Source: a virus
DNA: 40,810 bases
Virus record (IMG/VR): IMGVR_UViG_3300031952_000045
Coordinates: 1-40,810 of that record
Direction: 5' to 3' (one strand)
Shown one piece after another: positions 15,234-33,512 of the stretch. Numbering within the stretch: position 1 is the stretch's first letter; each line of letters opens with the position of its first letter. The notes below the pieces were generated by a model. The model made no database searches. It had not been told where the DNA came from and saw nothing but the letters and a program-made list of their open reading frames with translations. Position numbers and translations under genes: made by a program.

Positions 15234-16547
15234 TTATTTCGCTTTCCAATACATCGCAATTTGATTTATGCAGTCAAAATATTTAAATGGATTTATTTTA
15301 TATACATTTCGCATGTGTTCAACTGCTTTGTCGATATTCTTTTTATAGAAAAATTCTATTTTTGATAAATACCAATATACTTCCTCATTGCCACCCTTTA
15401 TATCTAGCAAATAATTAAAAATTCTCTCTGATTCTTTTATATTGTTAGAAAAAAATCCAGATTTTTCAGGTGTATTTTCATCCCATTGTAAAAAAAGTTT
15501 TGCCAATCTAAGTAAAATTTTTATATCATCTTTATTTATTTCAATACATTTTGAAAGTATATCTTTTTGTATCTCGAAATTTTTCATATTGTCTCTGTCC
15601 AGAGATAATCCTAAATATGCATCGGTATAAGTTGGAACTAAATTTATAGCATCTAAATATTTTTTTTGATTAAATAATTCAATTGCGTCTCTATAATTAT
15701 TTAATTTCTTTTCTATTTCCTCTGGATTTTCTTTTTCTATATTATTACTTATTTCACATTTTTTACACAATACAGTATATCCATAATATATATTGTTTTC
15801 TTTTATAATTTCAAATCCACATTTTTTCAGTAAATTTTTAAATGATGTTTTTGAAAAAACATTTATATGATTTAAGTGAAATAAATTTTCAAAATCTCTA
15901 CAATCAGACATGCTGGGCTCATCTAATTTTTCAAACCAAATTGGAACTGAAACATATAAATATCCATCGTCCGAAAGTAATTTTCTTATTTTTTTAAGTT
16001 CAAATTCGGGATACTGAATATGCTCCAAAACGTGGTAATAAGATATAAATGTGTACTGCTGCTCTATAATTTCAGTTGTAATATTTTCTAAACAATATTC
16101 ATATTTTGCAAAATTTCTAAATCCTTTCGACCATTCCGTACCGTATGTTCCAATTTTAGATACACATAAACCTGTTTTTTCTGCAATTTTATGCTGCATA
16201 AAATTAAGGAATGCACCCTGTGCGCATCCAACGTCTAAAATGTTGTTTTTAAATTTAACATTTTCAAAAAATTCTTTTAAAAATTTTGAATGATATTCAT
16301 TTTTTCTATTGCACGTAACAATATTGTTTGCATTCATAACCGGTCTTTCTCTGTCATAATGCTGTTTTAATTTTTCAATTTCCATGTAATTGTATGTAAC
16401 AAATCCACACTCCAGACAAATTTCAAATCCTATAGGTTCATTTTTTTCTTTTAAATCCAAATTATACCAATAGAGTTGATCTCTCATATAATCTAGATTT
16501 TTAAAATGTTTATTTCCACATATAGGACACTGCATTAGTTCAATCAT
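15234..16547 (-). CDS. Class I methyltransferase with zinc-ribbon N-terminus and TPR-like C-terminus
   Basis: A 437-residue three-part protein. Residues 1-50 hold two Cys pairs (CPIC at 7-10, CLECG at 44-48). Residues about 100-260 form an SAM methyltransferase with motif I ILDVGCAQGAFL at 103-114 and HVLEHI near 172. Residues about 290-437 have helical repeats resembling TPR units. This architecture is common in surface-polysaccharide and glycan gene clusters, where the enzyme methylates a sugar or carrier-bound glycan. It overlaps the nucleotidyltransferase-glycosyltransferase gene (ATGA), which argues for one shared pathway. Confidence 0.82.
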   Translation of the reverse strand: MIELMQCPICGNKHFKNLDYMRDQLYWYNLDLKEKNEPIGFEICLECGFVTYNYMEIEKLKQHYDRERPVMNANNIVTCNRKNEYHSKFLKEFFENVKFKNNILDVGCAQGAFLNFMQHKIAEKTGLCVSKIGTYGTEWSKGFRNFAKYEYCLENITTEIIEQQYTFISYYHVLEHIQYPEFELKKIRKLLSDDGYLYVSVPIWFEKLDEPSMSDCRDFENLFHLNHINVFSKTSFKNLLKKCGFEIIKENNIYYGYTVLCKKCEISNNIEKENPEEIEKKLNNYRDAIELFNQKKYLDAINLVPTYTDAYLGLSLDRDNMKNFEIQKDILSKCIEINKDDIKILLRLAKLFLQWDENTPEKSGFFSNNIKESERIFNYLLDIKGGNEEVYWYLSKIEFFYKKNIDKAVEHMRNVYKINPFKYFDCINQIAMYWKAK

Positions 16548-17854
16548 ATTACCTCTTTATTTAATATTTTATTTGGATGATCACTTTCCTGACTTTTTTG
16601 ATTTTTTCTACGTCTATATTTCCATAATGGTTTATTTATGTACATATATCTAAACTCATTTTTAAATCTATTAAAAAATTCTGTTCCCTCTAGATATTTT
16701 ATATCATTTTTATATTTCATATCATTAACTATTTTTTTAATAAAAAAACTGCAACCAGCGTGCCACATATTATCACACACTTCCTTTATGAAATTACCTT
16801 TTTCGTCAATTTCGTCATATCCAGAAATAACGGCCTGCACAGAATTAAGTTTTATTGTCTCCAGCATTTCCTGTAAAAAATCTGGTTTTATAACATCGTC
16901 AGAATCAACCCTAACAATATATTTTCCGCGTGCCGCACAAAGCGCTAAATTACTGGAATGAGTCAAACCTAAATTTTCCGAATTTCTATATAATTTAATT
17001 TTTTTCCTTTGTTCATTATTTAATTTTGAATAATATTCCAAAATTAAATTACACGATTTATCTGTACTATTATCGTCAACAATTATATACTCAAAATCTT
17101 TAAGTGTTTGCGAGAAAATACTATCAAATGTTTCAAAAATATATTTATCCGTATTATAGGAACACGTAAAAATAGTAATTTCCGGAAGTCTATTTAATTG
17201 GAGTAAGAATTTATTCTTTTTAAGAAAATTTATAATATCCAATGTCGTAAAGGGCTCTTGCAAAAAAAGATAAAGTATTCTAATTAAAAATAAATCTTCT
17301 TCATAATCCATTGTTAGGCGATAATTATATCTATAACTTTTAGGTGGTATATATTCATATATCTTGAAACATTTATTTCTAAAATAATAATGAAAAAATT
17401 CTATGGATTTATTTCCTATTTTATCTATTACTTTTTTTAGTGATGATATTTTTATTACCTCGCCAGCCACCCCCTCGGGACATTGCCTCATAAAAGTATA
17501 ATCAGAATTTGAATTTAAATGCTTTTCTATTTGCTCATAAAGTAAATATGTATCAATAAAAATATCGTCCGATGTAATACGAACCGCATTGTCAAAATCA
17601 TTTTGTTGGGCACACTCATAAAATCTATGCATGGGTGAATCATTTTGCCCCTTGTAACATTTTATTCCGTGTTTGAACGCGATTTTTTCAAGTTCAATAT
17701 CCGCAACCGGTATGGCAAGAATAATTTCATATTTGGGATTTTGTAGTTTTCCTATTAAAATTTCAATCGCAGTTTTACCGGCAATTTTTTGTAATACTTT
17801 TTTATGAAGTCTCTCGGAATCTATGCGTGCTAAAATTATTATTCCTATATTCAT
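16544..17854 (-). CDS. SpsF-like nucleotidyltransferase fused to a GT2 glycosyltransferase
   Basis: A 436-residue fusion. Residues 1-215 resemble SpsF/NeuA-type cytidylyltransferases: an N-terminal IIILARIDSERLHKKVL region, RITSDD at 92-97, and a TMDYEEDLFLI block at 181-191. Residues 226-436 form a GT2-family domain with IVDDNSTD at 258-265 and the metal site DSDD at 317-320. One chain could thus both activate a sugar and transfer one. It is preceded by two small genes and followed by the methyltransferase. Along with the NeuA/NeuB genes at 27467-29015 this forms a second glycan cluster of the phage. Confidence 0.82.
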   Translation of the reverse strand: MNIGIIILARIDSERLHKKVLQKIAGKTAIEILIGKLQNPKYEIILAIPVADIELEKIAFKHGIKCYKGQNDSPMHRFYECAQQNDFDNAVRITSDDIFIDTYLLYEQIEKHLNSNSDYTFMRQCPEGVAGEVIKISSLKKVIDKIGNKSIEFFHYYFRNKCFKIYEYIPPKSYRYNYRLTMDYEEDLFLIRILYLFLQEPFTTLDIINFLKKNKFLLQLNRLPEITIFTCSYNTDKYIFETFDSIFSQTLKDFEYIIVDDNSTDKSCNLILEYYSKLNNEQRKKIKLYRNSENLGLTHSSNLALCAARGKYIVRVDSDDVIKPDFLQEMLETIKLNSVQAVISGYDEIDEKGNFIKEVCDNMWHAGCSFFIKKIVNDMKYKNDIKYLEGTEFFNRFKNEFRYMYINKPLWKYRRRKNQKSQESDHPNKILNKEVI

Positions 17855-20548: not shown

Positions 20549-20604
20549 GAAAAATAACAGAGGAGAGAATCTACTATATTGGCGTAGATTATAGCCCTCT
20601 CCCC
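20549..20604 (-). terminator. Intrinsic terminator of the structured-RNA unit
   Basis: On the minus strand an eight-pair lower stem (GGGGAGAG with CTCTCCTC, one G-U), a six-base bulge, a perfect seven-pair upper stem (AATCTAC/GTAGATT) with a nine-base loop, then TTATTTTTC. It closes the unit that starts at the 21058-21085 promoter and lies just before the phosphoesterase start. Confidence 0.65.
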
Positions 20605-20633
20605 TGCTATAAAAAATTTAAGGAGGAGTTGAA

Positions 20634-20808: not shown

Positions 20809-21051
20809 TGGATGGGCTGGAATCGAACCAACTTGTGCTATGGTGAGCACAAACTAACCATAAGCCACCCAACACGTCACTGTACGATTTGTCTAATTTT
20901 CCAGTGTGCCAACACAGTTGACGATTGCGTCTCGTCCAGTTACCGTTCTCTGGATACGTCTGTGGTTTTAAGAACTCCATAAAACTGTGGCATTTTGAGG
21001 GACTCGAACCTCTCGCGGATTATTGCCCGCTGCTCCTTTATGCTCTTGCCT
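20809..21051 (-). ncRNA. Structured RNA with two tRNA-like ends
   Basis: This roughly 243-base stretch is visibly richer in G and C than its surroundings and is full of stems. The 5' element (21050-20989) has a GGCA/TGCC closing stem, a GCGG/CCGC hairpin and a T-arm with GGTTCGAGTCC. The 3' element (20871-20809) has a seven-pair acceptor (TGGGTGG with CCATCCA), a long central hairpin and a perfect five-pair T-arm around TTCGATT. Both are 62-63 bases, about ten short of a real tRNA, and lack a normal D-arm and seven-base anticodon loop. Between them are hairpins GACG/CGTC (20931-20920), TCCAG/CTGGA (20954-20935) and CACTG/CAGTG (20906-20878). A dedicated promoter starts transcription at the 5' element. 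Function is unknown. Confidence 0.65.
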
Positions 21052-21057
21052 ACATAT

Positions 21058-21085
21058 AATATACTAAATATAAAAAAATAGTCAA
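21058..21085 (-). promoter_or_regulatory. Promoter of the structured-RNA unit
   Basis: On the minus strand TTGACT (21085-21080), 16-base spacer ending ATTTAG, TATATT (21063-21058). The predicted transcript start is at about 21051, the first base of the tRNA-like element. The -35 overlaps the end of the 145-residue gene. It closely resembles the plus-strand promoter at 31319-31346, including the preceding AAATGC. Confidence 0.8.
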
Positions 21086-24261: not shown

Positions 24262-24476
24262 AATTCACCCCACAAAATATTATTATTTAATAATAATCCA
24301 ACCTGACCATTAAATTCACACTTAATTTTATGTGTCAAGCAAATTATTTCTTTTTCTGAATTTTTTATCAATTCCATTTCACGCTTGGTGTATTTACATT
24401 TTTCAAATATTGCATTGTAATTTTCATCTATATAAAATTTTTCATTTAATATTTTTGAATATATTTCTTTTTTCAT
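24258..24476 (-). CDS. Small hypothetical protein
   Basis: A 72-residue charged protein with two Cys residues in its middle and C-terminal parts. ATGA overlaps link it to both neighbours. No family is recognised. Confidence 0.6.
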   Translation of the reverse strand: MKKEIYSKILNEKFYIDENYNAIFEKCKYTKREMELIKNSEKEIICLTHKIKCEFNGQVGLLLNNNILWGEL

Positions 24477-25150
24477 TTTCCATCAATTTCTATAGCTTCA
24501 TTAGCTAATTTTATAAAATCTATTTCTTTATTTGAACGATAAGCAGCAGCAGCAGCATAAGCAGCAGCAGCAGCAGAAGCAGCATAAGCAGCATAAGCAG
24601 CATTAGCAGCATTAGCAGCAGCATTAGCAGCAGCAGAAGCAGCATTAGCAGCATAAGCAGCAGTATTAGCAGCAGCATAAGCAGCATCAGCAGCATAAGC
24701 AGCATCTATTTTTCCGGTCTTCAAATATTTCTTTGCTGCTTCTATTGCATTACGTGGTCTAGCATCTTCTGGATATTTTTCATTCCAAATCGGTAGTACT
24801 GCTTCCGCACATAATATCGCAAATCGTATATATACTCGCTTCCTAGTTTCTTCATCTTTATACCATGCCGGTGTTTTCAACTTCTTTATCGGTGTTAACT
24901 CAAATACTCCAACCTTATCCCAATCTTCAACCACCACTTTGCCTTTGCACTCGTATATATTGGGATTGTCTATATTAGCGTGACGCGGATTCATCAGTAA
25001 TCCGAAATTCAAATCTTTGTACGCATGGATTACGTCTCCACTGCAAAGTTCTGGATTGCTACATTTTCGTACAATATTTTTATTTCCTATTTTCCATTTC
25101 ATATTGTTTTTTGTAGTGTTGTCTTTCTCTGTTAATTTATATAGTTTCAT
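24473..25150 (-). CDS. Phage protein with DUF7666-like N-terminus and Ala-rich repeat tail
   Basis: A 225-residue protein. Residues 1-110 follow a pattern common in phage proteins: MKLYKLTE start, SGDVIHAYKDLNFGLLMNP (19 residues, about 37-55) and a mid ILCAEAVLP segment. Residues about 149-205 are almost only Ala with regularly placed Tyr, Asn and Ser. The DNA there is a low-complexity run based on GCA/TGC triplets. Such tails probably form long helices and vary in length between strains. Function is unknown. Confidence 0.65.
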   Translation of the reverse strand: MKLYKLTEKDNTTKNNMKWKIGNKNIVRKCSNPELCSGDVIHAYKDLNFGLLMNPRHANIDNPNIYECKGKVVVEDWDKVGVFELTPIKKLKTPAWYKDEETRKRVYIRFAILCAEAVLPIWNEKYPEDARPRNAIEAAKKYLKTGKIDAAYAADAAYAAANTAAYAANAASAAANAAANAANAAYAAYAASAAAAAYAAAAAYRSNKEIDFIKLANEAIEIDGK

Positions 25151-26563: not shown

Positions 26564-26592
26564 AATATAATAAATTATAATTAAAATGTCAA
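26564..26592 (-). promoter_or_regulatory. Sigma-70-type promoter behind the epimerase gene
   Basis: On the minus strand TTGACA (26592-26587), 17-base AT spacer, TATATT (26569-26564). The -35 overlaps the end of the epimerase gene, so downstream genes from 26546 leftward can be expressed apart from the sugar cassette. Confidence 0.75.
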
Positions 26593-27470
26593 TCATTTTT
26601 TATAATTTCAACTATTTTTAATTTATTCAGATAGTCTTCATATATTTTAGTCATTCCATCATAAAATGTAATTAGTGGATACCAGTTTAATAATTTAGAT
26701 GCCTTACATATACTTATTTTTTCACTTTTAATTTGACCGTATCTGTCACCCATATGAACATATTTACAATTCAAATGTGTTAATTCCTTTACTATATTTA
26801 TAACATCCCACACAGAAATTTCTTCATCACCACATATATTTATTATTTCATTACAGTCAACATTTTGCAAATAATTAACTGACTTGATTAAACCATTAAC
26901 AAGATCATCTATGTAAATTAAATTTCTAGTTTGTTTTCCATCACCATGTATGTGTATGGTTTTGTTGTTAATAATTTTTTCAAATGCAATGGCAGTAAAA
27001 AGATTATCTCTTTGTCCTATTCCGTATGTAGTACCAATTCTTGCAATTATATAATTTAACCCAACCATACCCTTAATTATATATTCACCCGCCATTTTTG
27101 AGCACGCATAAACCTCTTTTGTGTTTGGATAACTTTCTTCATTTTCGATTTTATCATAAGAATTTCCATACACGCAGCATGTGGAAATAAATAATAATTT
27201 CTTATTGTATTTGGCACAATATTTTGCTATGTTATATGTTCCACGAATATTTACCTCAAAATTCTTATCATTATCTTTTGCTGAATCATTTAAATCCGCA
27301 ATAGCGGCCATGTGTACTACAATGTTAGATTTTTTTATGGATTTTTTTAAATTTTCTTCATCTAGAATATCATCAGGAAAATCATAATTTATTATCTTGT
27401 AATTATCTTTTAATTTTTCACAAAATGCTTTTCCAATAAATCCACTTGATCCAGTTACCAATACTTTCAT
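26589..27470 (-). CDS. NAD-dependent sugar epimerase/dehydratase (extended SDR)
   Basis: A 293-residue extended short-chain dehydrogenase. It has GSSGFIG at 7-13 for NAD, STCCVYG at 96-102, and the catalytic YACSK at 121-125. Such enzymes epimerise or dehydrate nucleotide sugars. The start overlaps the NeuB stop (ATGA), placing it in one cassette with NeuB and the NeuA-like gene. It may make a precursor or modify a final sugar; the exact reaction cannot be read from sequence. Confidence 0.87.
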   Translation of the reverse strand: MKVLVTGSSGFIGKAFCEKLKDNYKIINYDFPDDILDEENLKKSIKKSNIVVHMAAIADLNDSAKDNDKNFEVNIRGTYNIAKYCAKYNKKLLFISTCCVYGNSYDKIENEESYPNTKEVYACSKMAGEYIIKGMVGLNYIIARIGTTYGIGQRDNLFTAIAFEKIINNKTIHIHGDGKQTRNLIYIDDLVNGLIKSVNYLQNVDCNEIINICGDEEISVWDVINIVKELTHLNCKYVHMGDRYGQIKSEKISICKASKLLNWYPLITFYDGMTKIYEDYLNKLKIVEIIKND

Positions 27471-28348
27471 ATTTTGGGCCTCACCATTTTAATTTTTTCG
27501 TTTGTAATCGTATCTCCGCAACCTATATCGGTTATGGCAACCATACCCCTGCGCAAATAATCCCTTTTCTCTATTTCGCATAAAAAACATTTTTTTTCTT
27601 TTAAACCCAACATATACGGGATAAATCTTATTTTGTCAACCATTTTTTTAAATTCATCCGTATTTGCAGAAATAAAATGATCGTGAAAAGTTTTTCCGTT
27701 TCTATCTAACGTAAAATGTTTTTCTATTATTTGAGCACCCATCAATACGGCCAATTCACAAGCAAACGTATCATTTGTGTGATCAGAATATCCAATTATA
27801 TTATTTGGAAATTTTTCCCTTAAATATAAAATTGAATTTAAATTAACATCTGTTTGTTGTGTCGGGTATGATGCAATGCAATGCAATATTGATACTGTAT
27901 TGGTTATGCTTCGTCTGTGCACTTCTAACATTCTAACTGCATTTTTTATTTCCAGTATATTACTAGCGGCAGTTGAAATTATTATTTCTCTATCTGTTTG
28001 AGATGCAGCATATAGAAAATTAGAATATATAATGTCACCGCTAGCAATTTTAATAATATTACAATATTTTCTTGCAAATTCCAAAGTTTGAAAACAAAGC
28101 GGTGTTAAAATAAATTCAATGTTACATTTTTTAGCTAAATCATGTAATTCAATAAAATTTTCTTTTGATAATTCAAATTTTTTAGCTAACTTGAATCGTT
28201 CTTTAAAATTTTTATTTATATAATTTTCAGCAATATAACACGTAAACTTAACAGCATCCGCACCTACTTCTTTTGCGGCATAAATCATTTGTTTTGCCGT
28301 TTCAATATTTCCCTCGTGGTTAACACCACATTCTGCTATTATATACAT
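27467..28348 (-). CDS. neuB: NeuB-family nonulosonic acid synthase (short SAF end)
   Basis: A 293-residue PEP-dependent synthase. Motifs: IAECGVNHEGN at 4-14, IASGDI at 101-106, LHCIASYPT at 155-163, IGYSDHT at 185-191, IEKHFT at 208-213, and DHFISA at 223-228. The enzyme condenses PEP with ManNAc or a 2,4-diacetamido sugar to form sialic, legionaminic or pseudaminic acid. The antifreeze-like SAF domain starts near 262 (RDYLRRG) but stops about 30 residues later, whereas family members usually run to about 335-350. The SAF arm normally covers the partner subunit's active site, so loss of its end may alter activity. It is coupled with the epimerase and follows the NeuA-like gene by four bases. 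Confidence 0.9.
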   Translation of the reverse strand: MYIIAECGVNHEGNIETAKQMIYAAKEVGADAVKFTCYIAENYINKNFKERFKLAKKFELSKENFIELHDLAKKCNIEFILTPLCFQTLEFARKYCNIIKIASGDIIYSNFLYAASQTDREIIISTAASNILEIKNAVRMLEVHRRSITNTVSILHCIASYPTQQTDVNLNSILYLREKFPNNIIGYSDHTNDTFACELAVLMGAQIIEKHFTLDRNGKTFHDHFISANTDEFKKMVDKIRFIPYMLGLKEKKCFLCEIEKRDYLRRGMVAITDIGCGDTITNEKIKMVRPKI

Positions 28349-28352
28349 ATTT

Positions 28353-29015
28353 TCACCTCGCTAAAATTTTCATAAATTCAACAAAATCGTCCTCTGAATC
28401 AATGTCCAGTTCTGTATTTTCATTTCTATCAATTTCATAAAAAACAGAATCCTTATTATAAAGTTGATTATTTAAATTTTTAATTTCATCTATTCTAAAA
28501 GCTATAATATAACCGAACCTCTCCCAAAAAATTGGAAAATCTTGTCTATTTACCATGTTCTCGTTAAACCATACTGGATTATAATTTACATCCAACATCC
28601 TAGCGGGAGTCATGCGTCCATTTATTTTTTTAACCGTAATTAAAGATTTAAAATTTTCATTTTCTAAATATTTATATATATCCAAAATGTGCGTACTAGA
28701 CCTAAGCGGAAAAGTTAAGTATAACATCATTACGGTGTCATAATAATCATTCATCCAAGGTGTTTTATAAAAAATATCCTCAAGACATTTTTTTATTTGG
28801 GTTTCTGATTTTGAATACATACTAGACCGAAAAATTATTTTATAATTATTATCAATGGCCATTTTTTTTATATATTCATCATCCGTATATATATAAATAT
28901 CGTGTGGATTTATTTCTGCATTTTTTAATTGGGATACCGAAAATGGAAATAAAAATCTATTTTTGTGATCTAACGTACTGTGTTCTTTGCATGGAATTAA
29001 AAACATTGTTTTCAT
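28353..29015 (-). CDS. CMP-nonulosonic acid cytidylyltransferase-like protein (NeuA family, divergent)
   Basis: A 220-residue protein with the NeuA layout: LYLTFPLRSSTHI at 98-110 (the family's LQPTSPLR block), NRQDFP at 156-161, and DIDSEDDF at 204-211. These enzymes activate sialic-type acids with CTP. The N-terminal nucleotide loop is unusual: LIPCKEHSTLDHKNR at 6-20 in place of the common IPARxGSKxxxxKN. Some key contacts may differ. It is directly followed by NeuB. A related N-acylneuraminate cytidylyltransferase is the best call. Confidence 0.75.
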   Translation of the reverse strand: MKTMFLIPCKEHSTLDHKNRFLFPFSVSQLKNAEINPHDIYIYTDDEYIKKMAIDNNYKIIFRSSMYSKSETQIKKCLEDIFYKTPWMNDYYDTVMMLYLTFPLRSSTHILDIYKYLENENFKSLITVKKINGRMTPARMLDVNYNPVWFNENMVNRQDFPIFWERFGYIIAFRIDEIKNLNNQLYNKDSVFYEIDRNENTELDIDSEDDFVEFMKILAR

Positions 29016-31213: not shown

Positions 31214-31318
31214 GTTTTTTTTAATATTTTTTAAAAAAATAATATATACAGAAGAGAATAAAATTAAGTTAGTTTCAACTAACAAGTTAAAATTTATTTA
31301 TACACAATAAAAAAATGC

Positions 31319-31346
31319 TTGACTTTTTTTCTAGATTGAGTATATT
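31319..31346 (+). promoter_or_regulatory. Strong rightward promoter of the only plus-strand block
   Basis: TTGACT (31319-31324), 16-base spacer with six T then CTAGATTGAG, TATATT (31341-31346). Apart from minor changes it matches the RNA-unit promoter at 21058-21085, including the bases before the -35. An upstream A-tract (31310-31315) may act as an UP-type element. Confidence 0.85.
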
Positions 31347-31352
31347 AGTATC

Positions 31353-31447
31353 AAGAGAGAGCAGAGGAAAATCGCACCGCAACTGGAGAAAGCGGAAAGC
31401 GTTTGAATGTTTCTCAAACCAGTATAAAAAAATAAGGAGAAATTGAT
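31353..31447 (+). promoter_or_regulatory. Structured leader before the acidic protein
   Basis: About 95 bases between the predicted start site and the ATG. It is richer in G and C than its surroundings, with two overlapping possible hairpins: GAGAAA with TTTCTC, and GTTTGA with TCAAAC. The two exclude each other, so the leader could act as a simple switch or 5' stabiliser. A strong AAGGAG site precedes the ATG. Confidence 0.5.
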
Positions 31448-32203: not shown

Positions 32204-32272
32204 TAAATTTAAATAAGGAGACATGAAATGATAATTAAAAATTTATACGGTAAAATAATTTTTGAAGGCGAT
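32192..32272. repeat. 81-bp exact direct repeat, copy 1
   Basis: Includes the end of the 59-residue gene, the intergenic ribosome site and the first 45 bases of the first pentapeptide gene. It recurs without mismatch 550 bases on, at 32742-32822. Confidence 0.95.
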
Positions 32273-32776
32273 GATTTAAGCGGAGCAGATTTATACGAAG
32301 CAGATTTATACGGAGCAAATTTACGAGGAGCAAATTTAAGCGGAGCAGATTTATACGGAGCAAATTTAAGCGAAGCAAATTTACTCGAAGCAAATTTAAG
32401 CGGATCAGATTTACGAGGAGCAGATTTATACGGAGCAAATTTACGAGGAGCAAATTTATACGAAGCAAATTTAAGCGGAGTAAATTTACGCGAAGCAAAT
32501 TTATACGGAGCAAATTTAAGCGAAGCAAATTTACTCGAAGCAAATTTAAGCGGATCAGATTTATACGGAGCAGATTTACGCGGAGCAGATTTACGCGGAG
32601 CAAATTTATACGGAGCAGATTTAAGCGAAGCAAATTTACGCGGAGCAAATTTAAGCGAAGCAAATTTACTCGAAGCAAATTTAAGCGGATCAGATTTACG
32701 AGGAGCAGATTTATACGGAGCAGATTTACGCGGAGCAGATTTACGCAGGGTAATAAATTTAAATAAGGAGACATGA
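32228..32776 (+). CDS. Pentapeptide-repeat protein, truncated duplicate
   Basis: A 182-residue protein. After a 15-residue start (MIIKNLYGKIIFEGD) there are over 30 consecutive A(D/N)LXX-type five-residue repeats. Such repeats fold as a right-handed square beta-helix; some bacterial members mimic DNA and bind gyrase. It lacks the C-terminal domain present in the next gene, and its last nine residues come from duplicated intergenic DNA. The DNA is a 15-base minisatellite using very few codons (GCA, AAT/GAT, TTA, then TAC/AGC/CGC/CGA/CTC and GGA/GAA). Confidence 0.85.
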   Translation: MIIKNLYGKIIFEGDDLSGADLYEADLYGANLRGANLSGADLYGANLSEANLLEANLSGSDLRGADLYGANLRGANLYEANLSGVNLREANLYGANLSEANLLEANLSGSDLYGADLRGADLRGANLYGADLSEANLRGANLSEANLLEANLSGSDLRGADLYGADLRGADLRRVINLNKET

Positions 32777-32822
32777 AATGATAATTAAAAATTTATACGG
32801 TAAAATAATTTTTGAAGGCGAT
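32742..32822. repeat. 81-bp exact direct repeat, copy 2
   Basis: Copy of 32192-32272. Because it joins in the middle of a pentapeptide codon run (TTACGCAG), the first pentapeptide gene ends on intergenic-derived codons (RVINLNKET), the mark of a tandem duplication. Confidence 0.95.
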
Positions 32823-33512
32823 TATTTACTCGAAGCAAATTTACTCGAAGCAAATTTAAGCGGAGCAAATTTAAGCGGATCAGATTTAAGCGGAGCAGAT
32901 TTACGCGGAGCAGATTTACGCAGAGCAAATTTACTCGAAGCAAATTTAAGCGGATCAGATTTACGAGGAGCAGATTTATACGGAGCAAATTTAAGCGGAT
33001 CAGATTTAAGCGAAGCAAATTTACGCGGAGCAAATTTAAGCGAAGCAAATTTACTCGAAGCAAATTTAAGCGGAGCAAATTTAAGCGGAGCAGATTTATA
33101 CGGAGCAGATTTACGCGGAGCAGATTTACGCAGAGCAAATTTATACGGAGCAGATTTAAGCGAAGCAAATTTACGCGGAGCAAATTTATACGGAGCAGAT
33201 TTATACGGAGTAAATTTAAGCGGAGTAAATTTAAGCGAAGCAAATTTATACGAAGCAAATTTAAGCGGAGCAGATTTACGCAGAGCAAATTTATACGGAG
33301 CAAATTTAAGCGGAGTAATAATACAGATAAACGGAAGTAGACACCAATTTATTTATGTGGAAAGTTGTAATCAAATTCAAATTGGGTGTCTAATTTATGC
33401 TGTAGAATATTGGATAGAAAATTATAAAATAATTGGAAAAGAAAATTATTATTCGGGCGAACAAATACAAGAATATTTTAAATATATAAAAATGTGTTGT
33501 GAAAATAAATAG
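32778..33512 (+). CDS. Pentapeptide-repeat protein with C-terminal phage domain
   Basis: A 244-residue protein with the same N-terminus as the preceding gene, about 33 pentapeptide repeats up to near residue 182, and a unique C-terminal domain of about 60 residues (SRHQFIYVES, IGCLIYAVEYWIENY, then EQIQEYFKYI). That C-terminal domain is seen in many phage pentapeptide proteins. The ATG follows the same GGAG site as gene 1. It ends two bases before the converging minus-strand gene, with no terminator in between. A DNA-mimic role is possible but unproven. Confidence 0.88.
   Translation: MIIKNLYGKIIFEGDYLLEANLLEANLSGANLSGSDLSGADLRGADLRRANLLEANLSGSDLRGADLYGANLSGSDLSEANLRGANLSEANLLEANLSGANLSGADLYGADLRGADLRRANLYGADLSEANLRGANLYGADLYGVNLSGVNLSEANLYEANLSGADLRRANLYGANLSGVIIQINGSRHQFIYVESCNQIQIGCLIYAVEYWIENYKIIGKENYYSGEQIQEYFKYIKMCCENK

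What the first reader, a model, noticed from the sequence alone, without database searches (positions are those of the whole stretch)
20809..21085. Independent transcription unit for a structured RNA bounded by two 62-63-base tRNA-like elements
A consensus promoter begins transcription right at the first tRNA-like element, and an intrinsic terminator ends the unit after a small frame. Both end elements carry T-arm consensus GGTTCGANTCC and closing stems but no normal D-arm or seven-base anticodon loop. Between them are several perfect hairpins. The GGCA strand at 20992-20989 can pair with TGCC in the first element or with the core (20910-20907), which would be mutually exclusive. I know no RNA class with this shape.
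Basis: partly seen in the sequence, partly recalled or inferred. Interest (0 to 1): 0.8.

Follow-up and report, generated by a model that had tools for sequence, protein, structure and literature searches.

The report
Non-decoding tRNA mimics in phage leader
A virus of bacteria makes an RNA that carries two shrunken tRNA look-alikes which cannot read codons; similar look-alikes, missed by standard tRNA and RNA-family searches, turn up in untranslated RNA regions of other phages, where they probably act as cutting marks for the host's tRNA-processing enzymes.

Summary
The unit is real, on the minus strand: promoter (21085-21058), start near 21051, 243 nt of GC-rich non-coding RNA in a 31% GC phage, then a 57-codon gene and an intrinsic terminator. 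Both ends carry exact T-arm consensus; no pair like this arose in 400 shuffled windows. The 3' element (E2, 20871-20809) is a compact 63-nt tRNA-like fold: 7-bp acceptor stacked on a 5-bp T-arm, a D-loop-like GG segment, a stem with a 6-nt loop. The 5' element (E1) is weaker. The middle folds no better than chance. ARAGORN and Rfam call nothing. Aberrant tRNA-like elements recur elsewhere: in a relative (L183, terminase 54% identical) behind a similar promoter; in Latilactobacillus phages, where one slot of a leader RNA holds unrelated non-decoding tRNA types; and in several other phages. Best reading: phage "t-elements", tRNA-shaped processing signals known from plant mitochondria and Haloferax. 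The 57-codon gene lacks a ribosome-binding site and its AUG follows E2's discriminator base directly, so RNase Z cleavage would give a leaderless mRNA. Processing is inferred, not shown. Rivals: tRNA decay, decoy, cis-regulatory leader.

The parts
21058..21085 (-). sigma-70-type promoter P1 (TTGACT-16-TATATT); expected start near 21051
   Evidence: 88% identical second copy at 31311-31351 +
20986..21054 (-). E1, 5' tRNA-like element: GGCA/TGCC closing (plus TGT/ACA across a bulged A), D-loop-like GC-ATAAAGGA-GC 21043-21032, stem GCGGG/TCCGC with 6-nt loop 21030-21015, T-arm GAG(A)GG-TTCGAGT-CCCTC 21014-20997, AAAA linker
   Evidence: fold z -2.19, 6/200; exact T-arm consensus; coordinates. Weaker than E2
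20872..20985 (-). intervening core RNA, 44% GC; no fold beyond chance, no coding signal
   Evidence: z 0.68; frames through the region score 0.05 and -0.12 per codon
20809..20871 (-). E2, 3' tRNA-like element, 63 nt: acceptor 20871-20865/20815-20809 (7 bp), D-loop-like CTTATGGTTAGT 20864-20853, 7-bp stem with 6-nt loop CACCAT 20852-20833, T-arm GTTGG-TTCGATT-CCAGC 20832-20816; no CCA; discriminator position G20808
20634..20807 (-). ORF57 (57 aa, no database match); AUG is the base after E2's discriminator; no Shine-Dalgarno
   Evidence: codon score 0.32 against wrong-frame maximum 0.24 and true-gene median 0.30; SD scan; translation; no Pfam match
20554..20610 (-). intrinsic terminator hairpin followed by TTATTTTT
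   Evidence: -26.7 kcal/mol; sequence

Best explanation
The unit is a phage transcript punctuated by tRNA-like, non-decoding processing signals (phage t-elements). Shown by sequence: a promoter starts an RNA at E1; E1 and E2 keep the parts that tRNA-processing enzymes read (T-loop, D-loop GG, and in E2 a 7+5 bp acceptor/T helix) and lack a 7-base anticodon loop and an encoded CCA; a coding ORF without a Shine-Dalgarno starts exactly one base after E2; a terminator closes the unit. Inferred: host RNase P and RNase Z cut at E2 (and perhaps E1), releasing a core RNA of about 114 nt and a leaderless mRNA for the 57-aa protein that begins with AUG. E2 is the secure element, E1 the doubtful one.
For: T-arm pair not met in 400 shuffles. 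E2 geometry exact, 63 nt. In 3.1 Mb of fetched phage and prophage DNA the T-arm-plus-acceptor descriptor finds 27 ARAGORN tRNAs and 7 non-ARAGORN hits; 1 hit in 9.4 Mb of shuffled control. Five of the 7 lie in non-coding stretches: E2, L015, L218 (two), L228. Related phage L183 has an ARAGORN-negative (RF00005 33.8 bits), 8-nt-anticodon-loop tRNA-like RNA behind a CGCTTGACA promoter, upstream of portal. Latilactobacillus phages hold either a 6-nt-loop Leu-like or an unrelated 8-nt-loop element in the same slot of a leader RNA between late activator and terS. None of about 11 aberrant elements encodes CCA, against 20 of 36 ARAGORN tRNAs in the loci, a count that still includes the aberrant L260 and L261. 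ORF57 is coding, lacks an SD, and its AUG abuts E2. t-elements are substrates of RNase P and RNase Z and are not aminoacylated (PMC11658184); flanking an RNA with two of them releases it (PMC4326828).
Against: No RNA data. E1's acceptor is poor and has a 4-nt linker that normal tRNAs lack. In the full transcript the predicted probability of E2's acceptor is only about 0.16 and of E1's closing stem 0.03. AUG directly after the element is seen only here; L015, L183, L218, L228 and L231 do not show it, so it may be chance (about 1 in 64 for ATG at that exact place). No homologue of this exact RNA was found, so no covariation test was possible. RNase Z in the likely host group was only a sub-cut-off match in one MAG.
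Confidence: 0.42

Rival explanations
1. Decaying tRNA genes: the phage once carried a small tRNA cluster, and E1 and E2 are remnants that have lost D-arm and anticodon.
For: E1 has bulges and a linker; phages gain and lose tRNAs; E2's 3' end GGTTCGATTCCAGCCCATCC equals that of a real phage tRNA-His. Non-functional tRNA fragments are common in prokaryotes (PMC9897764).
Against: E2's 12-bp acceptor/T helix is intact and compact, not randomly eroded; promoter, GC content (0.48 in a 0.31 genome) and terminator persist; comparable non-decoding elements recur in leader RNAs of other phages, with identical sequence across otherwise diverged flanks in L259 and L262.
Confidence: 0.2
2. Cis-regulatory leader (antitermination or translation control): a promoter-leader-terminator module before a late gene block, working like the lambda pR'-6S-tR' region, with tRNA-like folds as binding sites for a factor.
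For: The unit ends in a terminator upstream of lysis, packaging and structural genes; Latilactobacillus elements lie between late activator and terS, in several of them before a U-rich hairpin; L218, L228 and L206 elements lie just upstream of terminase genes.
Against: L015 and L231 are not in that position; other promoters lie inside the block; no antiterminator gene identified. Compatible with the t-element reading.
Confidence: 0.2
3. Trans-acting tRNA decoy: the stable RNA titrates host tRNA-binding enzymes or tRNA-targeting defences.
For: Elbow and acceptor kept, anticodon discarded; phages are known to counter tRNA-targeting defences with tRNAs (own knowledge, not tested).
Against: Single-copy element linked to an ORF; anticodon nucleases need an anticodon loop, which is aberrant here; no CCA end.
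Confidence: 0.1
4. Attachment-site tRNA fragment, functional tRNA pair, tmRNA, tRNA-Sec or Y RNA.
For: T-arm sequences; a weak tRNA-Sec alignment (20.6 bits, gathering 47).
Against: Both elements have 5' closing strands; ARAGORN and Rfam negative; no 7-nt anticodon loop; no TROVE/Ro gene; ARAGORN tmRNA calls appear only at very relaxed thresholds.
Confidence: 0.04

Closest known systems
t-elements of plant mitochondria and of Haloferax 5S rRNA
   Same: tRNA-like, not decoding, no encoded CCA, at the ends of other RNAs; two t-elements flanking an RNA release it (PMC11658184, PMC4326828)
   Different: those described keep typical tRNA-like secondary structure; here in phages, with reduced D region and 6-nt loop; processing untested
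Mitochondrial tRNA punctuation model
   Same: tRNA structures abutting ORFs; excision would yield leaderless mRNA
   Different: a bacterial virus; the element is not a working tRNA
D-arm-less mitochondrial tRNAs
   Same: short, D-stem replaced by a loop
   Different: those decode with a normal anticodon loop; E2 has a 6-nt loop
tmRNA tRNA-like domain
   Same: acceptor plus T-arm, D-loop without a proper stem, no anticodon arm
   Different: no resume ORF, no conserved 5' end, not found by ARAGORN
lambda 6S late leader (pR'-tR'), recalled
   Same: promoter, short RNA and terminator ahead of a late gene block
   Different: no tRNA-like parts in lambda 6S; antitermination untested here

Membership tests
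functional tRNA | cloverleaf with 7-nt anticodon loop | tested here: not met
   ARAGORN negative; relaxed ARAGORN gives a 6-nt loop for E2; E1 loop also 6 nt
functional tRNA | 7-bp acceptor stacked on T-arm | tested here: met
   E2 7/7 and 5/5; not met by E1
functional tRNA | CCA encoded or added, aminoacylation | not testable with these tools
   no CCA encoded after E1 or E2
t-element | tRNA-like fold at the end of another transcript | tested here: met
   E2 abuts coding ORF57
t-element | cleaved by RNase P and RNase Z | not testable with these tools
   needs end mapping or in vitro cleavage
tmRNA | paired 5' and 3' ends plus tag ORF | tested here: not met
   ARAGORN and Rfam negative
tRNA-Sec | Rfam gathering score 47 | tested here: not met
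   20.6 bits
bacterial Y RNA | Ro60/TROVE protein gene in the same record | tested here: not met
   PF05731 absent; the record may be a fragment
tRNA-derived attachment site | 3' half of a tRNA without its 5' half | tested here: not met
   E2 has a fully complementary 5' acceptor strand; two elements in tandem

The most novel reading that the evidence does not exclude
Phages use a widespread but overlooked class of non-decoding mini-tRNAs, down to acceptor, D-loop and T-arm only, as swappable modules of leader RNAs, which host RNase P and RNase Z cut to release small RNAs and leaderless mRNAs.
Probability: 0.3. Interest if true: 0.8.

Novelty: new variant of a known kind. Interest (0 to 1): 0.6.

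Why it matters
If true, phages use tRNA-processing enzymes as general RNA scissors, as mitochondria do, and a set of phage RNA elements is missed by standard annotation. It gives testable cases (Latilactobacillus phages are in culture) for what minimal tRNA shape these enzymes accept and for how some phage mRNAs become leaderless.

Tried and rejected
Homologues of the exact RNA: none in phages, plasmids or IMG/VR nor in the L092 genome. Rfam at relaxed thresholds: chance hits only. Y RNA via TROVE: none. Coding through the RNA: rejected. Structured core and switch: not beyond chance. Two descriptor hits, L099 and L157, lie in GC-rich sequence and were treated as probable chance matches in coding sequence, without a direct check. 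Relatives L181, L182, L184-L190 show no tRNA-like match in the stretches held. Exonuclease-adjacent synteny: not found in relatives. An RNA covariance model was not built: too few homologous sequences.

Full report
What the sequence holds. The window is a 40,810-base virus record, 30.6% GC. The unit lies on the minus strand. A promoter TTGACT-16-TATATT ends at 21058, a near copy of which stands at 31311-31351 on the other strand. RNA from about 21051 to 20809 has 47.7% GC. It is followed by ORF57 (20807-20634) and a terminator hairpin at 20610-20554. Codon statistics place ORF57 among real genes (0.32 per codon; wrong-frame maximum 0.24), while the frames running through the RNA score like non-coding sequence.

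The two elements. GGTTCGANTCC occurs only twice in the window, both in this RNA; 400 shuffled windows gave no such pair. E2 is a 63-nt tRNA-like fold: 7-bp acceptor, a 12-nt D-loop-like stretch with GG, a 7-bp stem with a 6-nt loop (or a nearly equal alternative hairpin, -21.7 against -22.6 kcal/mol), a 5-bp T-arm with TTCGATT, no variable loop and no CCA. E1 has the T-arm, a D-loop-like GG segment and a 5-bp stem with a 6-nt loop, but its acceptor is broken by a bulge and a linker. The middle and the whole do not fold better than shuffled sequence. In the full transcript the predicted pairing of both closing stems is weak, so formation would rely on folding during transcription or on tertiary contacts; this is inference.

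The phage and its relatives. The terminase large subunit has a 51% identical relative in a Spirochaetia MAG contig and 49-55% relatives in IMG/VR, several with shared structural gene order; a spirochaete host is therefore likely but not shown. One relative, L183, carries a promoter CGCTTGACA followed by non-coding RNA with an ARAGORN-negative tRNA-like element (RF00005, 33.8 bits; 8-nt anticodon loop) about 70 bases upstream of the portal gene. The other relatives show no tRNA-like match in the stretches held.

Recurrence outside the family. A T-arm-plus-acceptor descriptor applied to 3.1 Mb of fetched loci gave 27 ARAGORN tRNAs and 7 others; a Markov control gave 1 hit in 9.4 Mb. L218 has two elements without any anticodon arm, one with the D-loop ACTTGGTAGTTGATC; L228 has one in which a CGGC-UUCG-GCCG hairpin could stand in place of the anticodon arm. 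For L218 and L228 the predicted minimum-energy folds do not show the tRNA-like arrangement, so the parse there rests on the descriptor. Both loci hold these elements between the gene preceding the terminase region and terS/terL. L231 and L206 hold further examples that the descriptor did not score. In Latilactobacillus phages, which L228 led to, the leader RNA between the late activator and terS carries a Leu-like element with a 6-nt loop (L259, L262), a Leu-like element with an altered middle (L263), or an unrelated element with an 8-nt loop (L260, L261), with shared flanking structure and a U-rich hairpin after the element in L259-L261. None of these elements encodes CCA, against 20 of 36 ARAGORN tRNAs in the same loci, a set that still contains L260 and L261.

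Mechanism. The features kept are those read by RNase P, RNase Z and CCA-adding enzyme (established knowledge of tRNA processing); the features lost are those needed for decoding. This is the description of a t-element: in Arabidopsis mitochondria they are cleaved, CCA-tailed and base-modified but not aminoacylated (PMC11658184); in Haloferax one upstream of 5S rRNA is cut by tRNase Z, and two flanking a crRNA release it (PMC4326828). Here ORF57 has no Shine-Dalgarno, and its AUG follows the discriminator base of E2, so RNase Z cleavage would leave an mRNA that begins with AUG. The cleavage, the leaderless translation and the release of the core are inferred.

What weakens it. There is no expression data, no homologue of this exact RNA, a doubtful E1, and the AUG position is not shared by the other examples. 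tRNA decay and a cis-acting late leader remain serious rivals; the latter is compatible with processing. Searches of the held library found no report of such elements in phages, which is not proof of absence because most subscription papers are not held.

Noticed in passing
window 31311-31440 (+): Second copy of the P1 promoter, driving a leader of roughly 100 nt before a 167-aa ORF of unknown function.
   Followed up: partly
window 12046-12019 (-): A third promoter of the same style (TTGACA...TATATT) puts the start a few bases before the AUG of another 57-codon ORF, upstream of portal: possibly near-leaderless.
   Followed up: no
window 26589-29015 and 15234-17854: Sugar module: NeuB-like synthase, nucleotide-sugar epimerase, cytidylyltransferase-like protein, methyltransferase and glycosyltransferase, partly shared with relatives L182, L184 and L188.
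   Followed up: partly
window 32228-33512 (+): Two tandem pentapeptide-repeat genes with identical upstream 20-mers, on the plus strand while most genes are on the minus strand.
   Followed up: no
window 24473-25150 (-): Protein with an Imm5-like immunity domain.
   Followed up: no
L015 6505-6305 (-): Promoter, structured RNA with no Rfam match, and a D-arm-poor tRNA-like element with an 11-bp hairpin, before a 118-aa gene.
   Followed up: partly
L259-L263, leader between late activator and terS: One slot of a Latilactobacillus phage leader RNA holds different non-decoding tRNA-like types; identical element in L259 and L262 despite diverged downstream flanks.
   Followed up: partly
L206 8801-9734: Over 900 nt of non-coding DNA directly upstream of terL, containing a T-arm element; no Rfam match and no blastn match in phages.
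   Followed up: partly
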